From: Paenibacillaceae bacterium
Lineage (GTDB): Bacteria; Bacillota; Bacilli; Paenibacillales; CANHGK01
DNA length: 64,000 bases
Reading direction: 5' to 3'
NCBI GenBank assembly: GCA_947460235.1
Contig: CANHGK010000002.1
Location: forward strand, 1-64,000
In this document: piece after piece, positions 4,650 to 55,833 of the stretch
Layout: each line of letters opens with the position of its first letter
Numbering within the stretch: the stretch's first letter is position 1
Made by a program: the position numbers and the translations under genes
The notes under the pieces: model-generated
Told to the model about the DNA's origin: nothing
Databases searched by the model: none
Seen by the model: the letters and a program-made list of their open reading frames with translations, nothing else

Positions 4650-4917
4650 CCGCGCACCGATAATTGATACATGTGATCCAAGCGTTACCGCTCTTCAATG
4701 CTCAGACAAGGCAACCCCCCGGCACATGAAAGTTACGACTTATGGCTGCTTCCTTCCGGACCTGACCAAGTTCATCGATTTCCATTGCGGCGGACCCGAT
4801 CGTCAACACATCGTTGATTGGGCAGACCAAACATCACATTACCTCTTATACGGAATTCAACCCCGCTATTGCGGATTTCGGGTTACAGGGCACCGCAACC
4901 TCCCCGTCTAGCGCGAC
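4650..4917 (-). ncRNA. ffs: Large signal recognition particle RNA (Bacillus-type scRNA, 4.5S/6S-like)
   Basis: The minus strand carries the Alu-domain signature GCTAGACGGGGAGGT...CGGTGCCCTGTAACCCG near the 5' end. Further on is the universally conserved S-domain tip GGTCCGGAAGGAAGCAGCC (about 4744-4765) and the closing GGGGGGTTGCC. Length of about 270 nt is that of the large SRP RNA of Bacillales. The 3' end is approximate. The same neighbourhood (scr next to dnaX) is found in B. subtilis. It pairs with Ffh to target ribosomes to SecYEG/YidC. Confidence 0.93.
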
Positions 4918-5211: not shown

Positions 5212-5287
5212 CACGATCACCTCTTTCTGCCCTGAATCTTTAAGATACAGAGTTCAACGATTGTATATGTTATCACCTATTGCGCAC

Positions 5288-25549: not shown

Positions 25550-28500
25550 TTACATTTGCGAATCTACTGCTTTTAAGAGATTTGAAATAACTTGTGCAAC
25601 TTCAACGCGCGAAGCAGGTTTTAATGGGTTAAAGGAACCTTCACTGTTTTTGACAATCCCTACAGTTATTGCTTGTTGTACATAAGGAAGTGCCCAATCA
25701 TTGATCAATTCCGAATCCGCATAGGTTACATTATCTTCTTCTGGCGTTGTATCCGTCATATATTGATACGCTCGCATAAACATGGAAATCATTTCTTGAC
25801 GTGTCACACGGGCTGTCGGTGCAAACTTCCCATCACCTTTACCAGTAACAATTCCAGCGTCTGCTGCTGCGATGATATATTTGGAATACCATTTTGTTGG
25901 ATCTACATCTTTGAATTCTGACTCATTCGTTAATGGTAAATTCATGGCACGAACTAAGAACGTCGCAATTTCTGCACGTGTTACCGCTTGGTTTGGACCA
26001 AAATTTGTGTCTGAAATACCTGAGACAATATGTTTCGCTGTTAATTCTTTAATGACATTGTATCCCCAATGCGTTTTTGAAACGTCTTTATATGACTTCT
26101 CATAGCTAAACACTGCAAAATCACCGGTTTTGGATACACTTACGTCGATTGAGGTATCATTGATGTTTCCGCCAGTGTAAACCAATTCACTATCATCATT
26201 CACTGTATAAATACCAAGTAAGTTTGGATCTGCATTTTGGTCAAACGCGAGTGAAATGGTAATTGGTTTCTGGAATTCGGTAATCGGTACAAGTTTTCCG
26301 GCGTTAGTTAAGACTATTGCCTCAACTCCTGCCATTTCACCAGCAACATTAAATGTTAAACCTCGTTCTGTACTGCTCGGAATAAGCATTGATTTTTCGT
26401 CATCTGTCATGATGTGAATTCGGAAAATCACAGAATTTACGGTTTTATTATCCACGGATGCAGTGGTCAATAGTGATCTCAATGATTCCGTCGGAATCGC
26501 AACGCTTGCTGTTTCCTTGGTTAAAATTAGATCGTTTCCACTCCAATTCTCTGTTGCCTGATAAGGGATTGCAACGCCTTCCTCATCATTCGCAAGGACA
26601 ATGACTGGTTGATCTTCTTTCATTAAATCATTCATTTGTTCTTCTGTTACTTGTTTAATTCCATCAACAACTGGTGCAGGAATTATGTTAGGTGTCGTTG
26701 TCGCTGTTGGACTCGTTGTTTTCGTCGGCGTTGGTATCGGCGTCTTAACAGTTTCATTCGTTGGTGCAGGAGTCACATCTGGTGTTGGTCCTGGTGTTTC
26801 AACTGGTGGTTTCGGTGTTGCAAGCCCTTCTGGTGCTCCGCTTGTAATTGTACCTGAATCGAACGTTGAAATTCCGGCTTTGAACAAATAGTTTTTCATA
26901 CCATTGCTATCCCATTTACCGTTGCCATCATTAAAAGCAATTTCAACTTGGGAACCGCCGTTTAGTGGAATTAGAATCTGAGCATATCCTGCAGCAGATG
27001 ATGACTCAAGTGCTTTGCCCGGTACTGCCGTCCACGCACCACTTCCAACCCGGTAATGTGCGAAAGGTGTATCAAATCCCTTTTTGTAATAAATCATTGC
27101 TGCATCAGTATAATCATTGTCATTTGTTGTCGGAGTAACAACATTTGGTTTCGTCGAACCCGTTGTTTCCGTTTTCGCTCCAGCAGGTGCTCCAGTAGTG
27201 ATTGTTCCTGCATTAAATGTTGAATAGCCCGCTTTAAAGACATAGTTCTTCATACCATTACTGTCCCATTTACCGTTGCCATCATTAAAAGCAATTTCAA
27301 CTTGGGATCCACCATTTAATGGAATGCTAATTTTTGCGTAACCTGAAACTTCTGAAGCATCAAGCGCTTTTCCAGGTACCGTCGTCCATGGGCCACTACC
27401 TACACGATAGTGAGCGTATGGTGAATCAAAGCCTTTTTTGTAATAGATAATTGTTGTATCTGTTGTGTCAATTGAAGGCGTCGTCGGCCCAGTAGTGTCG
27501 GTAGTTACAACCGGTGTCGCTACCCCGCCCTTTGTAGGTGATGGCGTTACCACTGGTTTTGGTGTTACCACTGGTTTCGGCGTTGTTGCCGGCACCGGTG
27601 TTGCTGTCGCTTCAACAATTTTGGGATCATACGTCGGATCTGGTGTAACACTTACTAATTTACCATCGGACTTAAACATTGGTGCAACGGATATCGAATC
27701 ACGCGGTGGAACATTACTCATAAATGCATCTGTTCCTTCAATCGTTCCATTCGGATCTTCAATATAGCCAGTGCCACCTTTGCTATATTTACCTGCACCA
27801 ACCCACACTTGTTGAATATCGGATTTGGTTACATTACCCTTTGAGTCAATCGCTTCAATATAATAATCAAGCATTTGGCTGCGGAAATCATCGATGTAAG
27901 AATAATATAAATTACCGATTTTTTTACCGCCAATTGTTTTGTATAAATCAAATTGCGGACCTTTTTGCCATGCGACTCCATTCATCTCCGATGAAAGATC
28001 ACGTTGATACATCGGATATTCAATCCAATCGCTAACCGTAGATGCATCAATGTTTGCTACACCTTTAGCTTGCAATGCCTTAGGATCGTATACGCGGAAT
28101 GTATTGTCGGTTACATCAATTGACGACTTATTGTGTTTGCGGATCATCAATTTGATCCCCGAAACACCATTCACATCATCTGCATACGTATAGATACCAA
28201 ATTTATTGTTGAAATAACTTGGTGTCCACCCTTCAGACTTACCATTGTTCGCGCTACCAGGGTTGTACGGATAGCGTTGAGGCCACCAAATCGACGGACC
28301 CGTTTTATCTTTTGCAAGATTCTTTTTAACATAAGGTTCCGAGAAATAAAGTGATTGGTTGAATGAAATTGTTGGTTTAATATTATCGTCTTGGTTCTCG
28401 TCATAATAACCAAATCCTGAATCAATTGCAGGAACTAAGAAGTACCATGATAACTCAGCAGGGTTTGCCCCGCCTTTATAATCATTTGCCTCATCCCCTT

Positions 28501-30121
28501 TAACCGGATATGACATCATCCAAGGGTTCAACTGATTTCCTGCAGGGGCAACTTCACGATCCATTGCCGTTTTTGGCTGCCAATAGTTCGGATGATCATC
28601 TAACCAAATTTGCTCTGCTGTTTTTGCATAGTTCATTGCAGATTGCAATAACGCGAAGTTACGCTCTAAGTAATGATAACCATACTCAAAGTTCACACTC
28701 ATACCCATTGGATTTCCAGCAAGGTTTTTTTGTGGCGCTAAATTTGTACCCATTGCTTTATTAAAATCTGCAAATTGACCTTTCCAAATACAGAACGGCA
28801 AGTGCCAATGATACCAAGTTGGGTCAGCTGAAGAATCGCGTGTGTCAATCCATGAACCATCTTGAACGTGCGCCACATCACTATCTGCAGGTTTATTACT
28901 TACCAAATATTCATCGACACCTTGACCATTCATTCCAGCTTCGGAATAGGTCATATTGGCCCCACTCATCCACGTACCTTCATCGCCCGCACGACCTGAC
29001 GAGTTGTCTCCATCATGTGCGATAACGAAGAATTGTTTTTGTTTCGTCATACCATCATATTTTTTGAGGAATGTTCCACTAACCGAACCTTGATATCCCT
29101 CTTCCCAAGACGATGCTTGTTCAACTGGAATACCAACGATCCGTTGTTCTGAACCCGAGTTCGGATCAACATATTTTACCCAATGCGGTGTCGATGCAAA
29201 TGGGAATTTATTAAACGTGTTTTGTTTCTCATTAAACATCGGCTTCTTAATCCATTCACCGACATCGCTAGTGTTTTGGAAGTCTGCACGGTTTGGTGGT
29301 GAAACCATTGTGTCTGAACCAGGGTTATCCATTAACTCTTGAGGATAATCTTTTAATGCACGGGAAAAATGAATATTCCCCATTACTGACCATTCAATTC
29401 CTAACTTCTTCAATACTGGAATTAATCGCTCCGAGAAACCAAGTTCAGTCGGAAAAAACCCCTTGGATGACTTAAATGAATCGCCAAGAAAATATGGTTG
29501 CGCAAGTGTAACGTTATGATAAATCATGTCTTTCAACATATAGTCGTTTCCGACCAATGGCCCCATCGAGTGGTGACCTGTAAAATGAATCATATCAAGA
29601 ACGGGTTTTCCATTTGTTGTTTTTAACTTAGAGTAAGCATCTTTCCACGTTTTACCCCAATTTTTATTTCCGTAACCATCGACATTACCTAGTTCAGCAA
29701 AACTTTGTACATTATTAATTACAGCTGCTGACATGGTAACATGAATTTGACCTTGTTTGAATTTACCCGCAAGGTTATTTGCAACATTTGCTGGCCAAGA
29801 AGTATATGCACCAACCTTAGCATGATGCAAATAGTATTGACCGCCAGCCAAATCATCATGCGGCAATGGCTTGCCTGTACCAGACATTGGATAATTCGCT
29901 GGAGGATTTAGTTTATTGTTAACAACTTGTCCGTCGTATGAGTATCTGATCGCAGAACCATTGGTAGCTTTGTCATAGGTACTCGTGTCATACCAAGGAA
30001 AAAAATTTGGCATGTGATTGTGATAAACGTGGGTTGCGGCAATTTCGGCAAATGCGGCGTTAAGCGGCTGCAAAAACACAGCAATTAATACAAACAAAAC
30101 CATCAACTTACGTAACTTCAT
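25550..30121 (-). CDS. Secreted GH57-like glycoside hydrolase with two CBM25 and SLH domains
   Basis: 1523 residues. A signal peptide (about 1-26, cleavage after AAFA) leads to a large catalytic region (about 30-800) with GH57-like features: HVYHNHMPNFFPWY, TGHHSMGP, FFPTELGFSERLIPVLKKLGIEW and IAHDGDN. A Pro/Thr linker follows, then two CBM25 starch-binding modules (about 890-975 and 1004-1087), a second linker, an unknown beta domain (about 1130-1340) and three S-layer-homology domains (about 1347-1523). It probably acts on starch or a related alpha-glucan at the cell surface (family inference). ATG 30119-30121 has GGGAGGA. It sits between rpsF and tRNA-Ser, splitting otherwise conserved origin genes, so it looks acquired or relocated. 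Confidence 0.85.
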   Translation of the reverse strand: MKLRKLMVLFVLIAVFLQPLNAAFAEIAATHVYHNHMPNFFPWYDTSTYDKATNGSAIRYSYDGQVVNNKLNPPANYPMSGTGKPLPHDDLAGGQYYLHHAKVGAYTSWPANVANNLAGKFKQGQIHVTMSAAVINNVQSFAELGNVDGYGNKNWGKTWKDAYSKLKTTNGKPVLDMIHFTGHHSMGPLVGNDYMLKDMIYHNVTLAQPYFLGDSFKSSKGFFPTELGFSERLIPVLKKLGIEWSVMGNIHFSRALKDYPQELMDNPGSDTMVSPPNRADFQNTSDVGEWIKKPMFNEKQNTFNKFPFASTPHWVKYVDPNSGSEQRIVGIPVEQASSWEEGYQGSVSGTFLKKYDGMTKQKQFFVIAHDGDNSSGRAGDEGTWMSGANMTYSEAGMNGQGVDEYLVSNKPADSDVAHVQDGSWIDTRDSSADPTWYHWHLPFCIWKGQFADFNKAMGTNLAPQKNLAGNPMGMSVNFEYGYHYLERNFALLQSAMNYAKTAEQIWLDDHPNYWQPKTAMDREVAPAGNQLNPWMMSYPVKGDEANDYKGGANPAELSWYFLVPAIDSGFGYYDENQDDNIKPTISFNQSLYFSEPYVKKNLAKDKTGPSIWWPQRYPYNPGSANNGKSEGWTPSYFNNKFGIYTYADDVNGVSGIKLMIRKHNKSSIDVTDNTFRVYDPKALQAKGVANIDASTVSDWIEYPMYQRDLSSEMNGVAWQKGPQFDLYKTIGGKKIGNLYYSYIDDFRSQMLDYYIEAIDSKGNVTKSDIQQVWVGAGKYSKGGTGYIEDPNGTIEGTDAFMSNVPPRDSISVAPMFKSDGKLVSVTPDPTYDPKIVEATATPVPATTPKPVVTPKPVVTPSPTKGGVATPVVTTDTTGPTTPSIDTTDTTIIYYKKGFDSPYAHYRVGSGPWTTVPGKALDASEVSGYAKISIPLNGGSQVEIAFNDGNGKWDSNGMKNYVFKAGYSTFNAGTITTGAPAGAKTETTGSTKPNVVTPTTNDNDYTDAAMIYYKKGFDTPFAHYRVGSGAWTAVPGKALESSSAAGYAQILIPLNGGSQVEIAFNDGNGKWDSNGMKNYLFKAGISTFDSGTITSGAPEGLATPKPPVETPGPTPDVTPAPTNETVKTPIPTPTKTTSPTATTTPNIIPAPVVDGIKQVTEEQMNDLMKEDQPVIVLANDEEGVAIPYQATENWSGNDLILTKETASVAIPTESLRSLLTTASVDNKTVNSVIFRIHIMTDDEKSMLIPSSTERGLTFNVAGEMAGVEAIVLTNAGKLVPITEFQKPITISLAFDQNADPNLLGIYTVNDDSELVYTGGNINDTSIDVSVSKTGDFAVFSYEKSYKDVSKTHWGYNVIKELTAKHIVSGISDTNFGPNQAVTRAEIATFLVRAMNLPLTNESEFKDVDPTKWYSKYIIAAADAGIVTGKGDGKFAPTARVTRQEMISMFMRAYQYMTDTTPEEDNVTYADSELINDWALPYVQQAITVGIVKNSEGSFNPLKPASRVEVAQVISNLLKAVDSQM
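26887..27455. repeat. Tandem duplication encoding the two CBM25 modules
   Basis: Units about 26887-27100 and 27241-27455 are strongly similar at DNA level; one stretch covering the FNDGNGKWDSNGMKN coding region is nearly identical (around 26895-26950 versus 27247-27302). This points to a recent in-gene duplication or ongoing homogenisation. Confidence 0.8.
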
Positions 30122-30225
30122 TGAAGTTCCTCCCGGGTAATAAAATCGTTTGCACTTTGGTGCAAATAAAAAAGTTGTGACTGACCTCTTCACACATTAA
30201 AGCGCTTTCTTTTTGTCGCTAAATG

Positions 30226-48142: not shown

Positions 48143-48230
48143 AATAAAAAAAGTTGTCTCTGAAGCGATATAATGCGGATCTTATCTCCTGAATGAGACA
48201 GGGATCAAAACAACGTTAAGCAATATGCAG

Positions 48231-48266
48231 CCAGTCGTCGGATATTAACCGGCGACTGGTTTTTTA
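48231..48266 (+). terminator. Intrinsic terminator after gyrB
   Basis: CCAGTCG(T)CGG, short loop, CCG(G)CGACTGG then TTTTTT. Confidence 0.9.
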
Positions 48267-48492: not shown

Positions 48493-50283
48493 TTATAGTG
48501 CACGAAACCATTGATAAATGAGTTGCGCGGCTTGCAGTCGTGTGAGGGTTGAAGTGTCTATTGGTTTTACTAATTTCGTTGTTTTGATAAGTTGTAATGC
48601 TGAAAAGAGCGTATTGTTTGTTGATTTTATTATTTTTAAATGAACTGTTGGATCAATGGATTTTAAAATGAGTTGTAGATCTTTTATTGAAAGTAATTTG
48701 CTTGGTTTCCACATATTTTTAGTTACCGGAGGAATCCAATGTAATGCAACCATTGATGAAATCACAGAACGTGATGAGGACGTTCCTGAAATGTCGTGAA
48801 ATGGCGCTTTTAAGCTTGATTGTTTTGACATACGAACATGTAGCCAATCATAGACGGATAATTGATTTGCGACTGCTTGTAGTGCCAAATACGATTGAAT
48901 TGTAGACATAGGGTTTGATTTTCCGTTGATTGCGTGTGAAAAACCACCATCTTCACGTTGAAATTTTAATAATGCATCGATCGGTGTATTTCCATTTGTA
49001 GTTGTCCAATTAACAATTTGTTCTTTCCATGCAATAAGTGCTTGAATAATAGCCGCGTTTGTTTCCGCATTTTCTTTTACAATAGATAAAAAACCACCAT
49101 TTTCATTTTGCCATTGATGAATTCGATCAAACGCACGGATGACGAGTGGATCGTCTCGCGTAAGACCGAGTACTTTTGCAGCAATTAATGCCATTGCGGT
49201 CATATCCGGGTCAGAAGAAGATTTTGAATTGGCTTCTGCAGACCAATAAAAAGATCCATTTTCATGTTGTTGAACGCGTAAATAAGCGATTGCTTGTTCT
49301 TTGTCATTTAGTTTACCACCGGAGGAATAAAGACTTAATATAGCATAAACATGGGAGTTTACTAGTGTTTCCCCTTGCCCATTCAATTGATCGGCGAACG
49401 CGCCAGAAGATCGCTGTGCAGCTTGGATTATATTTTGATAAATAAAAATAGTTCGTTTGACATCCTCGGACTCGGGAAGAGAAGATAATGCGATCAAATG
49501 TCTTTCAATATCTGTAAGTGCGGTAAAAGGTGTTAAAGGTTCTGTAGATTTAATTCCTTTGATTTTTGGCTTGCAAACCGATTCTGCATTATGAAAATAA
49601 GCTGCAAGCACTGTCCAATCATCGGAGCGATTATTTGTAAAAGAATTAATAATTGGACATGCTTGTTGAATTGCTTGTTCTGTTGAGGTTTGGGCTGCAA
49701 AAGCAGATTGGTTAAATGAGTTTGGAATGATCAACATGAAGAATGCAAGTAGAATAACACCAGATAACTTAGATTTAAACCGATACATCGGTTTAACAAG
49801 CGGCCAGCCAATTGCAATAAATCCGATATTTGCACTAGCATGTGCTAGATCAAATAAGAAACTTTGCGCACAAACTATTAACCATGCAGACCACGTATGC
49901 GGATAAAATGCCCACCACGTCCATCCGTTCATAATCCAACCAAAGAAAAATCCCCACACAAACACCCAAGACCAACGAAACCATGTAGGACCTTTTACTA
50001 TCCAATTTCCAATTAAACCACTTGTAATCCCCATCAATCCCCATGCGAGTATTTGCCAAATTGTCCACGGACCGTGACCAAAAAATAAATTAGATCCTAA
50101 AGTCGTACAAATGGCGACGGCTAAACCAACTCTTGGTCCAAAAATTGCACCGACAATTATTATTAATGCACTGACCGGTTTAATATTTGGAAATGGTGCA
50201 AACATGATTCGACCCAAAATAGCGAATGCAGATAAACTTGCGACGAGAGAAATGATTCTTGCTCGATGTGCGCGTAGACTCAT
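48493..50283 (-). CDS. ECF transporter S component fused to extracellular alpha/alpha-barrel and SLH-like tail (predicted cobalamin uptake)
   Basis: 596 residues. About six membrane helices (10-30, 36-60, 72-95, 100-125, 130-160, 172-190), with an AxxxA motif in TM1 (A15, A19) as used by S components to dock EcfT. After an AFAA sequence (about 195) comes an outside domain (200-480) with Q-x-x-x-G-G-F-type repeats (QQHENGSF 338-345, WQNENGGF 391-398, FQREDGGF 441-448), typical of prenyltransferase/squalene-cyclase-like alpha/alpha barrels. The last ~100 residues (FHDISG..., TRLQAAQLIYQWF) resemble one full and one truncated SLH repeat. It overlaps the ATPase gene (ATGA), last of a riboswitch-controlled operon. 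Substrate B12 is inferred from the riboswitch. Confidence 0.8.
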   Translation of the reverse strand: MSLRAHRARIISLVASLSAFAILGRIMFAPFPNIKPVSALIIIVGAIFGPRVGLAVAICTTLGSNLFFGHGPWTIWQILAWGLMGITSGLIGNWIVKGPTWFRWSWVFVWGFFFGWIMNGWTWWAFYPHTWSAWLIVCAQSFLFDLAHASANIGFIAIGWPLVKPMYRFKSKLSGVILLAFFMLIIPNSFNQSAFAAQTSTEQAIQQACPIINSFTNNRSDDWTVLAAYFHNAESVCKPKIKGIKSTEPLTPFTALTDIERHLIALSSLPESEDVKRTIFIYQNIIQAAQRSSGAFADQLNGQGETLVNSHVYAILSLYSSGGKLNDKEQAIAYLRVQQHENGSFYWSAEANSKSSSDPDMTAMALIAAKVLGLTRDDPLVIRAFDRIHQWQNENGGFLSIVKENAETNAAIIQALIAWKEQIVNWTTTNGNTPIDALLKFQREDGGFSHAINGKSNPMSTIQSYLALQAVANQLSVYDWLHVRMSKQSSLKAPFHDISGTSSSRSVISSMVALHWIPPVTKNMWKPSKLLSIKDLQLILKSIDPTVHLKIIKSTNNTLFSALQLIKTTKLVKPIDTSTLTRLQAAQLIYQWFRAL

Positions 50284-51872
50284 TGTTGATCACGTCCCTT
50301 CTTTTGTGAGCGAAGGTATTGAACAGCTTGAGTTAATTGATAATGTCCAGTTAACGGAACAAGTGATGATTGATATAGTCCTGGCGATTTAAATAATCGT
50401 TCAGCGTCATATTCCGTTAGCTGAATATAATCACGTGTGCCTGATGATTGAAGCAACCAAACGTGATTGGCCCATTCTGCCGTAAAATCAAGATCATGAG
50501 AAGAAATTAGGGCAGTTCCACCACTCTCGCGATATGAGATGAGCCATGAGACAAATTGATTTTTTTGACGAATACTTAATCCGCTTGTTGGTTCATCCAT
50601 TAAAAGAAGAAGCGGTCTTCGAATAAGCACAGTTGCCAACGCTGCACGATGCCGTTCCCCACTACTCAAATCTCTAGGATGTGCATTTAAAATATTCGAT
50701 GATAGTTCAAGCGCGTCACAAATTTGATCAAACCGTCCCTGTTCTAATGATCGGTCTAGGCCCATCAGCGAAATGCTGTAATCTAATTCTTTAGAAATGG
50801 AATCGTGAATTAAATGATCATATGGATTTTGAGATACGTACCCGAACCAACGACTGCGCTCAGCAGGAGACCAGTTGGTAAGGTCTAACCCACTTTGTAA
50901 TTGTATTGTTCCTTGGATTGGTGTTATTAAGCCTGCTAATGCCCGCAAAAATGTCGATTTCCCAGAACCATTTGGACCGAATAAGGCAGTAAGTGAATTG
51001 GAACGTAAGATGGATTGAATATTATTTAAAATAATTTCATTATTTTCGTAAGCGCAGGTTAGTCTGTTTATATGAATATCATCAATTGGTTTATTTTTAA
51101 GTTTTGATTGTTTTGGTTTCAATTGATTTTCTTCGGTGATCGACATCGCGGTTGCTCGCTTCGTTAGCGGTAACCAATCACGCCAAAATATCGAATTCAC
51201 GGCAAAATCAAACCAGTGATCGACAGATCCATCCCAAATAATGCTGCCCTTGTCCATCATGATCACGCGTGTTGCTAGTGGTAACCAATGTTCAATCCGA
51301 TGATCTGCAACGATTAACGAGTGTTTTTTATTAGATATCCAATCGCGAACGAGTGTTGTTAATTTTTGGATGCATTGAACATCTAGGTGTGCAATGGGTT
51401 CATCTAAAATAAATAAATCAGGATCTGTCAATGAAATTGCGCCAATTAGCAGACGCTGTTTTTCTCCAGTTGAAAGTGTTTGGACTTCGCGGTTCTGCCA
51501 CGATTGGACTGGTAACCAAGATTGAACGTGTTCAAGCCGTCGGTCCATCTCTTTTCGTGAAAATCCTAGTTGTTCCATGCCAAATACCAGTTCACCAAGC
51601 ACATCTGGCATGATGATTTGTTGCTCTGGATCTTGCATAACAAATCCACTATTAAACGTATGATTGAGACTATGAATTTGTAATAAACCACCATAAAAAT
51701 CAGGAATTAATCCTTGAAGAATACGCAAAAAAGTCGATTTCCCAGCACCTGAAGAACCAATCAACAAAACGAATTCGCCAGGTTGAATTGAAAAGGAATC
51801 GATTGAAACATTCCAGGTATCTGAATTAGTAGAGGGATACCGATATCGGATTTGTTCAAAATGGATCGTCAT
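50280..51872 (-). CDS. ecfA: Energy-coupling factor ATPase, fused EcfA-EcfA'
   Basis: 530 residues with two ABC domains in one chain. Domain 1: Walker A GSSGAGKS (39-46), signature LSTGE (133-137), Walker B LFILDEP, H-loop VADHR. Domain 2: Walker A GPNGSGKS (299-306), signature LSSGE (about 400), Walker B LLLMDEP, H-loop SSHD. This is the energising pair of an ECF importer. ATG overlaps the ecfT stop (ATGA), and the S component overlaps its own stop, so subunits are made in fixed order. Confidence 0.92.
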   Translation of the reverse strand: MTIHFEQIRYRYPSTNSDTWNVSIDSFSIQPGEFVLLIGSSGAGKSTFLRILQGLIPDFYGGLLQIHSLNHTFNSGFVMQDPEQQIIMPDVLGELVFGMEQLGFSRKEMDRRLEHVQSWLPVQSWQNREVQTLSTGEKQRLLIGAISLTDPDLFILDEPIAHLDVQCIQKLTTLVRDWISNKKHSLIVADHRIEHWLPLATRVIMMDKGSIIWDGSVDHWFDFAVNSIFWRDWLPLTKRATAMSITEENQLKPKQSKLKNKPIDDIHINRLTCAYENNEIILNNIQSILRSNSLTALFGPNGSGKSTFLRALAGLITPIQGTIQLQSGLDLTNWSPAERSRWFGYVSQNPYDHLIHDSISKELDYSISLMGLDRSLEQGRFDQICDALELSSNILNAHPRDLSSGERHRAALATVLIRRPLLLLMDEPTSGLSIRQKNQFVSWLISYRESGGTALISSHDLDFTAEWANHVWLLQSSGTRDYIQLTEYDAERLFKSPGLYQSSLVPLTGHYQLTQAVQYLRSQKKGRDQQ

Positions 51873-52690
51873 ACGCCACGTCTCTGCTGTGCGTATGCAC
51901 GTTGTATTTCAAAAGGAATAAGTAATGCGACTAAAAGTTCCGGAACCCAAATTGAAAAGATCGAAAATAGGATACATAACAATATAAGCAGATCAAACCA
52001 ACTCCACTGTTCAGCGGCATAAATTGTTCGTTTATGATTACCATAACCTCTCGCAATCATTGCTTCCGCACGGTGCCATGAACCTTCCAGTGACTCATCA
52101 AGCAATGCTTGAAGCAGAGGAAGGCGAACAAGAATTGATTGTTTCCATGTTCGATTTGAATCTGGTTGAAATCCTCGCGTTTGTAACACGTCCAGTAAAT
52201 GCTTACTACGTTCGCGTAATACGGGTACTAATCGTAAGGTCATATAAATCATCTGTGTACCGTCAGGAAATAATTGCGCGGTAAATGGCAAAAGTCTTTT
52301 TGTAGGCAATAACGGCTGAATGGCAATAAATAAAAACCAAAACATCAAAAAGCGGATCATTGAAATGGTTGTATCATTTATCGCTTCCATTGTCGTCCGC
52401 CAATGTAAATTGAGATCAAAATTAAACAATGTGATGGTACCCTGCCATTCGAGAAGCACGTGCTGCCCATCATGGCGGAGTACTAGTTGTATTAGTGAAA
52501 ACAAAATCAAAAAGCGAATCATCCACTTTCCCTGCTGAATTATTGTCGACCATTGCTTCGTCCGCCAAACGATCCAAAGTACAAGAAAAGACTCGATCAA
52601 TAATGCGAAAAGATCATCAAATAACCAAATCAATGAGAATAAAATAATTGCATAGACTAACCAGGAAAAAATATGACCGCGAGTTTGCAT
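51869..52690 (-). CDS. ecfT: Energy-coupling factor transmembrane protein EcfT (CbiQ family)
   Basis: 273 residues. Membrane helices at about 8-42, 55-70, 110-128 and 232-262. Two cytoplasmic coupling motifs, TRG (171-173) and ARG (213-215), sit in the helices that contact the ATPases. It links the fused ATPase to the S component. ATG with GGAGGAAAC, sharing one base with the preceding stop codon (TAATG). Confidence 0.9.
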   Translation of the reverse strand: MQTRGHIFSWLVYAIILFSLIWLFDDLFALLIESFLVLWIVWRTKQWSTIIQQGKWMIRFLILFSLIQLVLRHDGQHVLLEWQGTITLFNFDLNLHWRTTMEAINDTTISMIRFLMFWFLFIAIQPLLPTKRLLPFTAQLFPDGTQMIYMTLRLVPVLRERSKHLLDVLQTRGFQPDSNRTWKQSILVRLPLLQALLDESLEGSWHRAEAMIARGYGNHKRTIYAAEQWSWFDLLILLCILFSIFSIWVPELLVALLIPFEIQRAYAQQRRGV

Positions 52691-53535
52691 TAGTCGTTTC
52701 CTCCTTCAACTGGAATAAGAGTGGAACCATTAAGTGTTGCAGCGGCCCATCCATGCCATACCGATGAAGAAGAAAGAAGAGTAATCATTGAACGCGCATT
52801 TTTTTCGTTGTTTGCTTCGAGTGTCCAGACAATTGGACGAGATTCATTGAGACGACTGCGTGTTGCGCGAAACAGCGCATCCGATTTTACGGATGAAACG
52901 ATCCGGAATGAAGGTGTTTCAATAGATTCTATTTTTACATCAGAAATATTAGTTAAAACGATCGGAGCAGAACAAACGGTGGCAATCCAAAATTGGAGTT
53001 CTTCAGCAGCCTTTTCAAAACCTTGATCATAAATAATTTGCAGTGTTTGATTTTGATTCATTGCAATAAATGGTTGCGGGAACGAGCCAATCATCGCATC
53101 AATATCGTCTTTTCCATTCCCCCAGGAGTGAAAATCCCACTGAATCAAATCACCATGATGAATGAACACATCCCCTGCCCCGTTATCAGATAACAAACCA
53201 TTCACATAAAAAAACCAATCGTTTTTTTTACGGTCTGTCCATGATTTTGAGGTATAACCAGATTCTAGACCATTAATTGCATTAATAAATGTACCGTCAT
53301 ACGCTGTTTTGATTTGAAAATGTTGTTTCATTGCAGAAAGTAGATTTAATGTATTATCAACTGTACCATTGTATGATCCAATTTTTTTTGTGCCAAAATC
53401 TCGCGTTATTAAAATTGAAAACGTATTCGGTAAAACGGATGAGTGGGCAGTTTCATGCTTTGAGAATTGAATTTGGCAACCGCAAATGATAACAAGAACG
53501 AACATCACCATAACGAAACGCAAAGAACGAATCAT
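52690..53535 (-). CDS. DUF4430 lipoprotein (predicted cobalamin-binding partner)
   Basis: 281 residues from ATG 53533-53535 (AAGGAGGTGA upstream). Lipoprotein signal with lipobox ICGC (C20). Residues about 36-138 form a DUF4430 domain: NTLNLLSAMKQH helix, WFFYVNG (107-113), HHGDLIQWDF (126-135). DUF4430 is related to the C-terminal domain of transcobalamin/intrinsic factor (family knowledge, from memory). The C-terminal half (about 145-281) is a mixed alpha/beta region I do not recognise. It probably sits on the outer face of the membrane beside the ECF complex. Confidence 0.8.
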   Translation of the reverse strand: MIRSLRFVMVMFVLVIICGCQIQFSKHETAHSSVLPNTFSILITRDFGTKKIGSYNGTVDNTLNLLSAMKQHFQIKTAYDGTFINAINGLESGYTSKSWTDRKKNDWFFYVNGLLSDNGAGDVFIHHGDLIQWDFHSWGNGKDDIDAMIGSFPQPFIAMNQNQTLQIIYDQGFEKAAEELQFWIATVCSAPIVLTNISDVKIESIETPSFRIVSSVKSDALFRATRSRLNESRPIVWTLEANNEKNARSMITLLSSSSVWHGWAAATLNGSTLIPVEGGND

Positions 53536-53568
53536 GACCACTCACCTCCTTCATTTAATGAAAAATAG

Positions 53569-54759
53569 TTATTGTTGAACGTCATCAATCATGCGAAGCA
53601 CGTGTACAAACTCAGCGCGAGTGATCGCCTGATTTGGATGGTACGTACGATCTGCATATCCGTTAATTATCGCGCGATTTGCGATTGCTTGAACTGCTGT
53701 CAATGCGGTTGAAGAAATTGATTTTTGGTCACGCCAGTTTGAATTTACAGGTTGAAGTACTGGGAACTTTGAATTTAATGTGGGTGTGGATGTTAAAACT
53801 TCATTCAAAATAACGGCCATTTGTTGTCGTGTGACCGTTTGGAATGATGATTTGTAATTAGCAGTTGCTAACCATTTAGAAATTGGAGCATTTTTAAAAA
53901 GAACGCTAAAAGCATCTGTTAATTCAGCGAAACTAACGGGTTCGTTAGGAGCAAAAGTTTGATTTTTTTTGAGTGGCAACCAACCGCGCGCTGCGTTGCG
54001 GATGATGCACGGATACGCCCAAAACGTTGATTTGATATCGCTAATCTTGGATCCATCGAATTGAATTGGTAAGGTGAGCGTGCGGCTTTTTACAAGTAAA
54101 GGTAATCCATTGGACGGGTCATATTTTTCAACGGTAACATGTAATGGAGCACCCGTTGGAATTGTAATTTGCGCCGATCCAGTTGCATCGGTTTTTAGTT
54201 GGATGAAGGATTGATCGTTTTGGTTAATAGAGACCATCGCGTCAGGGATCGTTACGATCGATGTTGATGCGTTCCAATTTTCATCATACATTGTTTTCGT
54301 TGCAGACGTATGGATAGTTACGATTTGACCAGGTTGATAAACAGCTTGTTTTGGTGAAAAATCTACAATCGGATACAATGTGGATGAATAATCATAAATT
54401 GACCACACAATTTCATCACCGTTATTAATAGAGGTCTGATCTGCACCAACTTCTGGCGATTGAGCGTTTACCCAGAACCCCCACCCACTTGATGCGGATA
54501 TTTTCTTTTCGGCTAAACCGGCCACAGATATTACATATGGACCATACGTTGTGTCTTTCGTTTGAACAGATAAATTTTTAGAAGATGCAAATGTTTTTAA
54601 TGCACTTAATGCATCTGGTTTCGATGGAGTGATCCAGCCTTCATAGCTACCACCAGGACCTGTAATGATTCGAACAAGTACTTCGTTTGCTGCAAAAACA
54701 GGTTGTGCCATAATCAAAATAATCACGGAAATGAGTAAAAAACTAATGTAACGTTTCAA
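53569..54759 (-). CDS. S-layer-anchored DUF4430 protein (predicted cobalamin capture)
   Basis: 396 residues from TTG 54757-54759, which has GGGAGGA; the longer frame runs back into the terminator and riboswitch and is not real. Signal peptide (about 1-24, PVFA-A), DUF4430 (about 25-125: GWGFWVNA 92-99, NNGDEIVWS 112-120), an Ig-like domain (about 128-240, QPGQIVTIH) and two to three SLH repeats (about 255-396, with WLPLKKN..FAPNEPVS and GYADRTYHPNQAITRAEF). First gene of the riboswitch-led operon, so likely the outermost ligand-binding element. Confidence 0.82.
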   Translation of the reverse strand: MKRYISFLLISVIILIMAQPVFAANEVLVRIITGPGGSYEGWITPSKPDALSALKTFASSKNLSVQTKDTTYGPYVISVAGLAEKKISASSGWGFWVNAQSPEVGADQTSINNGDEIVWSIYDYSSTLYPIVDFSPKQAVYQPGQIVTIHTSATKTMYDENWNASTSIVTIPDAMVSINQNDQSFIQLKTDATGSAQITIPTGAPLHVTVEKYDPSNGLPLLVKSRTLTLPIQFDGSKISDIKSTFWAYPCIIRNAARGWLPLKKNQTFAPNEPVSFAELTDAFSVLFKNAPISKWLATANYKSSFQTVTRQQMAVILNEVLTSTPTLNSKFPVLQPVNSNWRDQKSISSTALTAVQAIANRAIINGYADRTYHPNQAITRAEFVHVLRMIDDVQQ

Positions 54760-54789
54760 TGTTAATTCCTCCCAATTATCTAATTGAAC

Positions 54790-54834
54790 ATAAAAAAACC
54801 TTTGATTGAACCGATAGGTCCTGATCAAAGGGTT
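54790..54834 (-). terminator. Terminator of the cobalamin riboswitch (expression platform)
   Basis: Minus strand AACCCTTTGAT...ATCAAAGG followed by seven T, between the aptamer and the first start codon. A terminator here means B12 binding most likely stops transcription early. Confidence 0.85.
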
Positions 54835-54899
54835 AGATTCGTACGCATTCAAAACAAAACCACGAAATAGATCTGATGTGTGCACGCATCAGCAAATTG

Positions 54900-55150
54900 A
54901 GGTTCATGATCTGCGTCCGCATTCCTTCCCTCCGAAGGTGATCGGGTCTGAAATCGTACGCAGGTATCCTGGCTTAGGGGTCATCTGATGCTTGAAGCCT
55001 TCTCATCCAATGTTGGACAATGGCATCGTCTCAAGTTCATCACCCTTAACAGTAGCGGGGGCTGCAGCGGATTTGAACCGCTTTCCCTCCAATAATCTCA
55101 TCGATTACTGGGCGCTCCATTCCATAAAAATGGCGGAGTGCAACATACAA
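54900..55150 (-). promoter_or_regulatory. Cobalamin (B12) riboswitch aptamer
   Basis: Minus strand carries the class hallmarks in order: GAGGGAAAGCGGTTCAAATCCGC, GCAGCCCCCGCTACTGT, the long peripheral arm, GATGACCCC..AAGCCAGGATACCTGC (B12 box region) and the closing GGTTCAAxATCCGC-type pairing. It is followed by an intrinsic terminator. It controls the DUF4430/ECF operon. Confidence 0.95.
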
Positions 55151-55176
55151 TTTGTTTGGTGTAACGTTTTCACGAT

Positions 55177-55182
55177 ATCATA
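55177..55182 (-). promoter_or_regulatory. Probable -10 element of the riboswitch-controlled operon
   Basis: TATGAT on the minus strand, about 30 bases upstream of the aptamer; the best -35 (TTGTTG) has a short 15-bp spacer, so the promoter is weak or non-standard. Confidence 0.35.
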
Positions 55183-55296: not shown

Positions 55297-55833
55297 TTAT
55301 CGCCAAGTGGTCAATAATTTACCTTTCATTGCTAAGTCATCCAAACGATATCTGGATTCCACCATGTTCGTCCACGTCAAATAAGAGAACGAGAAGTTTT
55401 CGTTATTTTTGCTTGCTGCATGCATTTTGCGAATGGACTCTAAATAATTGTCCGGTAATTTGAGTTTGCGTGTTCCAATAACAATATTCGTTTTGGAATT
55501 AATTAGTGCGAGAATCGCTTCCCCGGTTTGGAATAACGATTCTGAGGGCCCTTGAAGTAAGCAAGGATCAAAGCGTGACAAGAAAAACTGCGGCATAATC
55601 CCAAACGAGAAAACGCTGACGACCATCGAATTGTTTGGCTCAGTAAAGTTATAGAGCTTCATTTCCTGCTTTTCTACTAAGCGGATAAAATCAGGACCCG
55701 GTTGTGGATGGTAAAGCCGGATTACAAAACCGCCGTCTGGATACCAGTCCATGACAACCCCGCCTTTGCGAAGGTTCTCAGGTGCTGGTATTGGGTATGG
55801 ATATTCTTTTTGAGGTTTGACAATCTGAGACAT
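55297..55833 (-). CDS. Uncharacterised cytoplasmic protein
   Basis: 178 residues, not recognised. No signal peptide or membrane segment. The N-terminus is Pro/Tyr-rich (YPYPIPAPENLRKGG); a beta-rich middle (VVMDWYPDGGFVIRLYHPQPGPDFIRLVE, VVSVFSFGIMPQFFLSRFDP) and helical C-terminus follow. ATG with GGAAGGGAG. It is monocistronic with its own terminator, between the B12 operon and pth, and reads head-on to replication. Base use resembles neighbours. Confidence 0.75.
   Translation of the reverse strand: MSQIVKPQKEYPYPIPAPENLRKGGVVMDWYPDGGFVIRLYHPQPGPDFIRLVEKQEMKLYNFTEPNNSMVVSVFSFGIMPQFFLSRFDPCLLQGPSESLFQTGEAILALINSKTNIVIGTRKLKLPDNYLESIRKMHAASKNNENFSFSYLTWTNMVESRYRLDDLAMKGKLLTTWR

What the first reader, a model, noticed from the sequence alone, without database searches (positions are those of the whole stretch)
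48493..55182. Riboswitch-controlled ECF importer built from transcobalamin-like parts
Seen: a cobalamin riboswitch with terminator leads a tightly overlapped operon encoding two exported DUF4430 proteins, EcfT, fused EcfA-EcfA' and an S component with an outside alpha/alpha-barrel-like domain. Known: animal transcobalamin and intrinsic factor consist of an alpha6/alpha6 barrel plus a small beta domain that I recall as DUF4430-like, and these clamp B12 between them. Inference: this operon is a bacterial B12 importer in which the two halves of a transcobalamin-type clamp are on separate proteins, one fused to the transporter. B12 would be caught between the DUF4430 lipoprotein or S-layer protein and the S-component barrel, then passed inwards.
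Basis: partly seen in the sequence, partly recalled or inferred. Interest (0 to 1): 0.88.

Follow-up and report, generated by a model that had tools for sequence, protein, structure and literature searches.

The report
Bacterial B12 importer with transcobalamin-like parts
This operon looks like the only vitamin B12 import system of a bacterium that appears to depend on outside B12, and it carries on separate proteins relatives of the two halves of the animal B12 carrier transcobalamin, one of them joined to the membrane transporter; bacterial systems of this general kind were predicted in 2007, but this arrangement had not been described in anything I could find.

Summary
An RF00174 cobalamin riboswitch and terminator precede five tight genes: a DUF4430-SLH exported protein, a DUF4430 lipoprotein, EcfT, fused EcfA-EcfA', and an S component with a C-terminal alpha/alpha barrel. 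The S domain is homologous to CbrT, the solved B12 S component (PDB 6fnp, profile E=1.4e-26). The DUF4430 profile hits the B12-binding beta domains of transcobalamin-2 and haptocorrin. In most relatives barrel and DUF4430 sit together on one surface protein in the same riboswitch-led operon; a model of one such protein matches all 15 transcobalamin, haptocorrin and intrinsic-factor chains ahead of everything else in the PDB. The window genome has MetH but no MetE, CobS or BtuF-type protein, so this is its only visible B12 import route. The S-barrel fusion is real but not unique: four Solirubrobacterales/Actinomycetota loci share it. The general idea (DUF4430 plus toroid surface proteins scavenging B12 with CbiO/CbiQ; animal transcobalamin derived from Gram-positives) was published as a prediction in 2007 (PMC1796856). 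New here: the CbrT-type S component, its fusion to the barrel, and a DUF4430-free barrel clade paired with its own DUF4430 subtype. B12 binding, the split clamp and hand-over remain inferred.

The parts
54942..55132 (-). Cobalamin riboswitch aptamer (RF00174), the only one in the genome
   Evidence: cmscan 104.7 bits, E 3.6e-25; whole-genome search finds one copy
54792..54831 (-). Intrinsic terminator of the riboswitch leader: two-part stem then U7
   Evidence: fold -16.3 kcal/mol, z -2.5; sequence. The consensus scanner did not list it, probably because of the bulge
53569..54759 (-). Exported DUF4430 protein with SLH wall-anchoring domains, from the probable TTG start
   Evidence: PF14478 5.7e-11, PF00395 1.1e-14; signal peptide h-region
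52690..53541 (-). DUF4430 lipoprotein (probable lipobox ICGC), subtype ending in QWDFH
   Evidence: PF14478 1e-13; subtype analysis
51869..52690 (-). EcfT, diverged CbiQ-type coupling membrane protein with LQTRGF and MIARGYG motifs
   Evidence: homologous to EcfT at the same operon position, several hitting PF02361
50280..51872 (-). Fused EcfA-EcfA' ATPase
   Evidence: two ABC_tran stretches; ECF_ATPase_2 6.3e-72
49699..50283 (-). CbrT-like S-component membrane domain (residues 1-195), including a hydrophobic segment at about 173-195 resembling a signal peptide
   Evidence: PDB 6fnp phmmer 6e-14, profile 1.4e-26; hydropathy
48775..49698 (-). Alpha/alpha toroid (barrel) domain of the S component
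   Evidence: PF13249 1.4e-7, PF00432 4.6e-7; AF2 helical repeat with pLDDT mostly 80-97 from residue about 256; Foldseek to alpha/alpha toroids
48496..48774 (-). C-terminal tail, possibly a decayed SLH region
   Evidence: falls where SLH repeats follow barrels in relatives; hhalign to SLH weak, probability 4.8: inconclusive

Best explanation
The operon is a riboswitch-controlled ECF-type importer for cobalamin. When intracellular cobalamin falls, the riboswitch stops terminating transcription and five proteins are made. The DUF4430-SLH protein on the wall and the DUF4430 lipoprotein on the membrane present beta domains homologous to the transcobalamin C-terminal domain. The S component displays, outside the membrane behind a seventh hydrophobic segment, an alpha/alpha toroid of the kind that forms the other half of transcobalamin. 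B12 is most likely caught between a DUF4430 domain and the toroid, then released to the CbrT-like membrane pocket and moved in by EcfT and the ATPase. Shown here: parts, homologies, operon conservation, genome context. Inferred: B12 as substrate (very likely), barrel outside (likely), split clamp between separate proteins (more likely than not), direct hand-over (plausible).
For: S domain: sole significant PDB relative is ECF-CbrT 6fnp, E 1.4e-26. Riboswitch upstream of the operon in the window, in all 15 scanned loci of the order that hold the first gene and in 7 of 8 more distant loci (the eighth, L055, is cut at the operon start). DUF4430 profile: transcobalamin-2 beta domain 2e-5 and haptocorrin 5e-5 among its three best PDB hits. 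Among 61 genomes of the order, the 15 with the CbrT-like S component are exactly the 15 with strong DUF4430 hits. 72 of 80 CbrT-like loci across Bacillota, Actinomycetota and MAGs carry DUF4430 and/or the barrel within 10 kb. Natural barrel+DUF4430 protein: AF2 pLDDT 91, pTM 0.82; its top 15 PDB fold matches are all transcobalamin, haptocorrin or intrinsic factor, best E 2.5e-9 against 7e-5 for the best other. DUF4430-free barrels, the window's among them, form one clade (support 0.885), and 9 of 13 such loci have the WD[FYWL][HR] DUF4430 subtype against 4 of 76 others (Fisher 7e-7, not corrected for phylogeny). Own genome: MetH present, no MetE, no CobS, no BtuF-type protein, cobalamin adenosyltransferase present.
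Against: No binding or transport data exist. Alone, the barrel's sequence and fold are nearest to squalene-hopene cyclases, with transcobalamin only at rank 28. The two-domain model matches transcobalamin domain by domain, but overall rmsd is 19 A, so the closed clamp geometry is not reproduced. The full S-component model has pTM 0.58, and the linker at residues 178-192 has pLDDT below 50. The hydrophobic segment ends in AFA-AQ, so signal peptidase might cut the barrel free. 8 of 80 CbrT-like loci show neither domain, several because of short contigs.
Confidence: 0.72

Rival explanations
1. B12 importer, but no split clamp: the DUF4430 proteins bind B12 on their own as wall and membrane reservoirs, and the barrel only docks them onto the S component or serves as a lid.
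For: Some CbrT-like operons (L059, L064, L077, L078, L081, L113, L126) have DUF4430 and no detected barrel, so DUF4430 can serve without it. The barrel's closest folds are general toroids.
Against: In most relatives the barrel is fused next to DUF4430, as in transcobalamin. DUF4430-free barrels pair with one DUF4430 subtype.
Confidence: 0.22
2. The S component is processed: the segment at 173-195 is an internal signal peptide and the barrel is cut off and released, so no lasting fusion exists in the cell.
For: The segment ends in AFA-AQ, like a signal peptidase site; fused Solirubrobacterales proteins show a similar hydrophobic stretch followed by AHA or AQA. In L063 the barrel-SLH gene follows the S gene separately.
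Against: The fusion is kept as one reading frame in the window and in four actinobacterial loci, which a cut product would not require.
Confidence: 0.25
3. The barrel is an extracytoplasmic enzyme related to squalene or terpene cyclases, unrelated to B12 capture.
For: Best sequence relatives are squalene-hopene cyclases.
Against: Their catalytic DXDD motif reads DPDM in the window. The barrel is tied to B12-riboswitch operons and fused to DUF4430 or to a B12-type S component.
Confidence: 0.04
4. The system imports a B12 precursor, lower-ligand base or other corrinoid rather than complete cobalamin.
For: Cobalamin riboswitches also control cobalt and corrinoid importers (own knowledge); a reviewer of the 2007 paper raised ligand diversity.
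Against: The genome lacks CobS, so cobinamide could not be completed by the usual route. The S domain is CbrT-like, and CbrT is characterised as a B12 transporter (PMC5997447).
Confidence: 0.1

Closest known systems
[quoted passage not shown] 2007, PMC1796856)
   Same: Predicted surface SLBB (DUF4430) proteins, often fused to alpha/alpha toroids, in operons with CbiO-like ATPase and CbiQ-like protein, scavenging B12; second paralogous SLBB protein in the operon; animal transcobalamin proposed to come from Gram-positives.
   Different: The passages read do not describe an S component, a riboswitch, a toroid fused to a transporter, or SLBB and toroid on separate proteins.
ECF-CbrT of Lactobacillus delbrueckii (PDB 6fnp, PMC5997447)
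   Same: Full-length homology of the S membrane domain; EcfT and two EcfA ATPases.
   Different: Here the transporter genes are in a dedicated operon, the ATPases are fused, a toroid is fused to S, and two DUF4430 proteins are added. A text search of the CbrT paper for extracellular domain, lipoprotein and S-layer found nothing.
Animal transcobalamin-2, haptocorrin, intrinsic factor
   Same: DUF4430 is homologous to their beta domain; relatives of this operon carry barrel and beta domain on one protein.
   Different: In the window the two halves are on separate proteins and one is part of a membrane importer.
BtuFCD B12 importer
   Same: B12 uptake by an ABC transporter with an extracytoplasmic capture protein.
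   Different: No BtuF-type protein in this genome; capture parts and membrane parts are of other families.
Solirubrobacterales S-barrel fusions (L115, L117, L118, L124; barrel of L115 resembles NCBIfam SCO2321 family)
   Same: CbrT-like S component fused to a barrel, with two DUF4430 genes and RF00174 upstream in the three loci long enough to show it.
   Different: No SLH domain seen there; the S tree cannot say whether the window's fusion is independent.

Membership tests
ECF-type B12 transporter (CbrT) | S component homologous to CbrT over the membrane domain | tested here: met
   6fnp, profile E 1.4e-26, residues 6-177 of the chain
ECF-type B12 transporter (CbrT) | EcfT and two EcfA ATPase domains | tested here: met
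ECF-type B12 transporter (CbrT) | Transports cobalamin | not testable with these tools
   needs an uptake assay; supported by riboswitch and genome context
ECF-type B12 transporter (CbrT) | Works without a separate extracellular binding protein (general ECF feature, own knowledge) | tested here: inconclusive
   operon encodes two candidate capture proteins; whether they are needed is not shown
Transcobalamin/intrinsic factor family | Beta domain (DUF4430 / transcobalamin-like C-terminal) | tested here: met
   PF14478; profile hits transcobalamin-2 2e-5, haptocorrin 5e-5
Transcobalamin/intrinsic factor family | Alpha6/alpha6 barrel specifically of transcobalamin type | tested here: inconclusive
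   alpha/alpha toroid fold yes; nearest are squalene cyclases, transcobalamin at rank 28
Transcobalamin/intrinsic factor family | Barrel then beta domain on one polypeptide | tested here: not met
   separate proteins in the window; met in relatives such as L093
Transcobalamin/intrinsic factor family | B12 sandwiched between the two domains | not testable with these tools
   needs binding data or a ligand structure
SLBB transcobalamin-like clade (Burroughs 2007) | Exported SLBB domain in operon with CbiO- and CbiQ-like genes in a bacterium lacking key B12 synthesis enzymes | tested here: met
   paper
Cobalamin riboswitch RF00174 | Score above gathering threshold, full-length model | tested here: met
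   104.7 bits against 31.5; positions 1-189
Class II terpene (squalene-hopene) cyclase | Catalytic DXDD motif | tested here: not met
   corresponding stretch reads SDPDMTAMA

The most novel reading that the evidence does not exclude
An ECF importer that, against the usual picture of ECF transporters working without binding proteins, captures its vitamin with a two-piece clamp: a separate DUF4430 protein closes on a barrel built into the S component, and reopening drops B12 into the membrane pocket. Animal transcobalamin would be the fused, freed form of such a clamp.
Probability: 0.4. Interest if true: 0.75.

Novelty: new variant of a known kind. Interest (0 to 1): 0.52.

Why it matters
ECF transporters are usually described as needing no separate binding protein; a widespread B12 branch with dedicated surface capture proteins would change that picture. 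It gives a concrete bacterial system in which to test the 2007 proposal that animal B12 carriers came from Gram-positive bacteria, and the S-barrel fusion ties the capture half physically to the importer, so hand-over can be tested.

Tried and rejected
Searching the PDB with a barrel-end plus DUF4430 profile to get a residue-level alignment with transcobalamin: no extension into the barrel, so conserved B12-contact residues could not be checked. The two-domain profile against PDB sequences returned only toroid-type hits. Decayed SLH in the S tail: weak, left open. S-domain tree: window on a long branch, support 0.2-0.5, so independence of the fusion is unresolved. Terpene cyclase reading rejected for lack of DXDD and for operon context. 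The literature library is open-access only (10 searches), so subscription papers on these operons may have been missed.

Full report
OBSERVATION. On the minus strand, a cobalamin riboswitch (RF00174, 104.7 bits) at 54942-55132 is followed by a terminator hairpin with U7 at about 54831-54792 and five genes. The first is a DUF4430 protein with two SLH stretches, the second a DUF4430 protein with a probable lipobox, then EcfT, a fused double ATPase, and a 596-aa S component. The first gene most likely starts at TTG 54759, after GGGAGG. EcfT is too diverged for Pfam, but is homologous to the gene at the same place in relatives, several of which hit CbiQ, and keeps two ARG-type motifs.

THE S COMPONENT. 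Residues 8-173 match PDB 6fnp, which from my own knowledge is ECF-CbrT, the B12 transporter of PMC5997447 (6e-14). A profile of 13 relatives gives 6fnp as its only significant PDB hit, E 1.4e-26. After a hydrophobic segment at about 173-195 ending in AFA-AQ, the rest is an alpha/alpha toroid whose nearest folds are squalene cyclases and prenyltransferases, with transcobalamin among the matches at rank 28. An extra seventh membrane segment would put the barrel outside, if S components have both ends in the cytoplasm (own knowledge; inference).

RELATIVES. Of 60 other genomes of the order, 14 have a strong match to the S domain, and the same genomes have strong DUF4430 hits; the rest have none, apart from one weak hit on each side, G006 and G038. 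Their operons run riboswitch, large exported protein (700-2270 aa with one to three barrels, one to four DUF4430 domains and usually SLH), DUF4430 lipoprotein, EcfT, EcfA-EcfA', S. A scan of 84,980 species with the S profile gave 80 loci from Bacillota, Actinomycetota and uncultured lineages: 71 have DUF4430 and 57 the barrel within 10 kb, 72 at least one. Anchors vary: SLH, LPXTG, copper-amine-oxidase N-terminal domain.

FUSION AND SPLITTING. S-barrel fusions occur in the window and in four Solirubrobacterales/Actinomycetota loci (L115, L117, L118, L124). Barrels without DUF4430 (fused or standing alone) form one clade of 14 with support 0.885. In L063 a barrel-SLH gene lies just after the S gene, a plausible unfused precursor arrangement. 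Loci with such barrels carry a DUF4430 subtype ending in WD[FYWL][HR] in 9 of 13 cases, against 4 of 76 elsewhere (Fisher 7e-7 without phylogenetic correction). The pattern was noticed in the same data, so this is suggestive, not a clean test. It fits a barrel and a DUF4430 protein that work as partners.

LINK TO TRANSCOBALAMIN. The DUF4430 profile finds transcobalamin-2 (2e-5) and haptocorrin (5e-5) as two of its three best solved relatives, with intrinsic factor weaker at 0.06. A natural barrel-DUF4430 protein from Paenibacillus (L093) folds with pLDDT 91 and pTM 0.82. Its first 15 PDB matches are all transcobalamin, haptocorrin or intrinsic factor chains aligned over both domains. The rmsd of about 19 A shows that the relative placement of the domains differs from the closed B12-bound form.

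PHYSIOLOGY. The window genome (2.72 Mb, 99% complete) has MetH, a cobalamin adenosyltransferase and a B12-type radical SAM protein, but no MetE, no CobS and no BtuF-type binding protein. The riboswitch, both DUF4430 genes and the prenyltransferase-type toroid are each found only here. Unless an enzyme was missed, it must import cobalamin to make methionine, and this operon is the only visible route.

MECHANISM. Shown: the parts and their homologies, conservation of the operon, and genome context. Inferred: cobalamin as substrate (about 0.9), barrel outside (about 0.8), clamp formed by separate DUF4430 and barrel proteins (about 0.55), direct hand-over to the S pocket (about 0.4).

PRIOR ART. 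Burroughs et al. 2007 (PMC1796856) already described bacterial transcobalamin-like SLBB domains, their toroid fusions, paired SLBB proteins, CbiO/CbiQ operons, absence of B12 synthesis genes, and a proposed transfer to animals. No later paper in the open library ties DUF4430 to B12 import in bacteria. What this work adds is the CbrT-type S component, riboswitch control across the family, the S-barrel fusion, the DUF4430-free barrel clade, and the dependence of this genome on the system.

Noticed in passing
window 25556-30190 (-): Large surface protein with family-25 carbohydrate-binding domains, SLH anchors and a weak glycosyl hydrolase 57 match: probable wall-bound starch-type hydrolase.
   Followed up: partly
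window 55297-55833 (-): 178-aa protein just upstream of the riboswitch with no Pfam or NCBIfam match.
   Followed up: no
window 48229-48261 (+): Strong terminator-like hairpin (13 pairs) after gyrB, between it and the convergent B12 operon.
   Followed up: no
window 4650-4916 (-): Large bacterial SRP RNA, with an L31-Firmicutes ribosomal protein leader nearby at 5221-5252.
   Followed up: no
L109 1365-3659: Syntrophomonadaceae protein with barrel then DUF4430, the same order as animal transcobalamin, directly after the S gene.
   Followed up: partly
L126 2519-6540: Operon with DUF4430, EcfT, EcfA-EcfA' and a CbrT-like S component in a contig labelled Aciduliprofundum (archaeal MAG); transfer or binning error not examined.
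   Followed up: no
L039 10651-17454, L040 2611-9336: Giant surface proteins of over 2200 aa with two barrels and three to four DUF4430 domains: possible multi-site B12 stores on the cell wall.
   Followed up: partly
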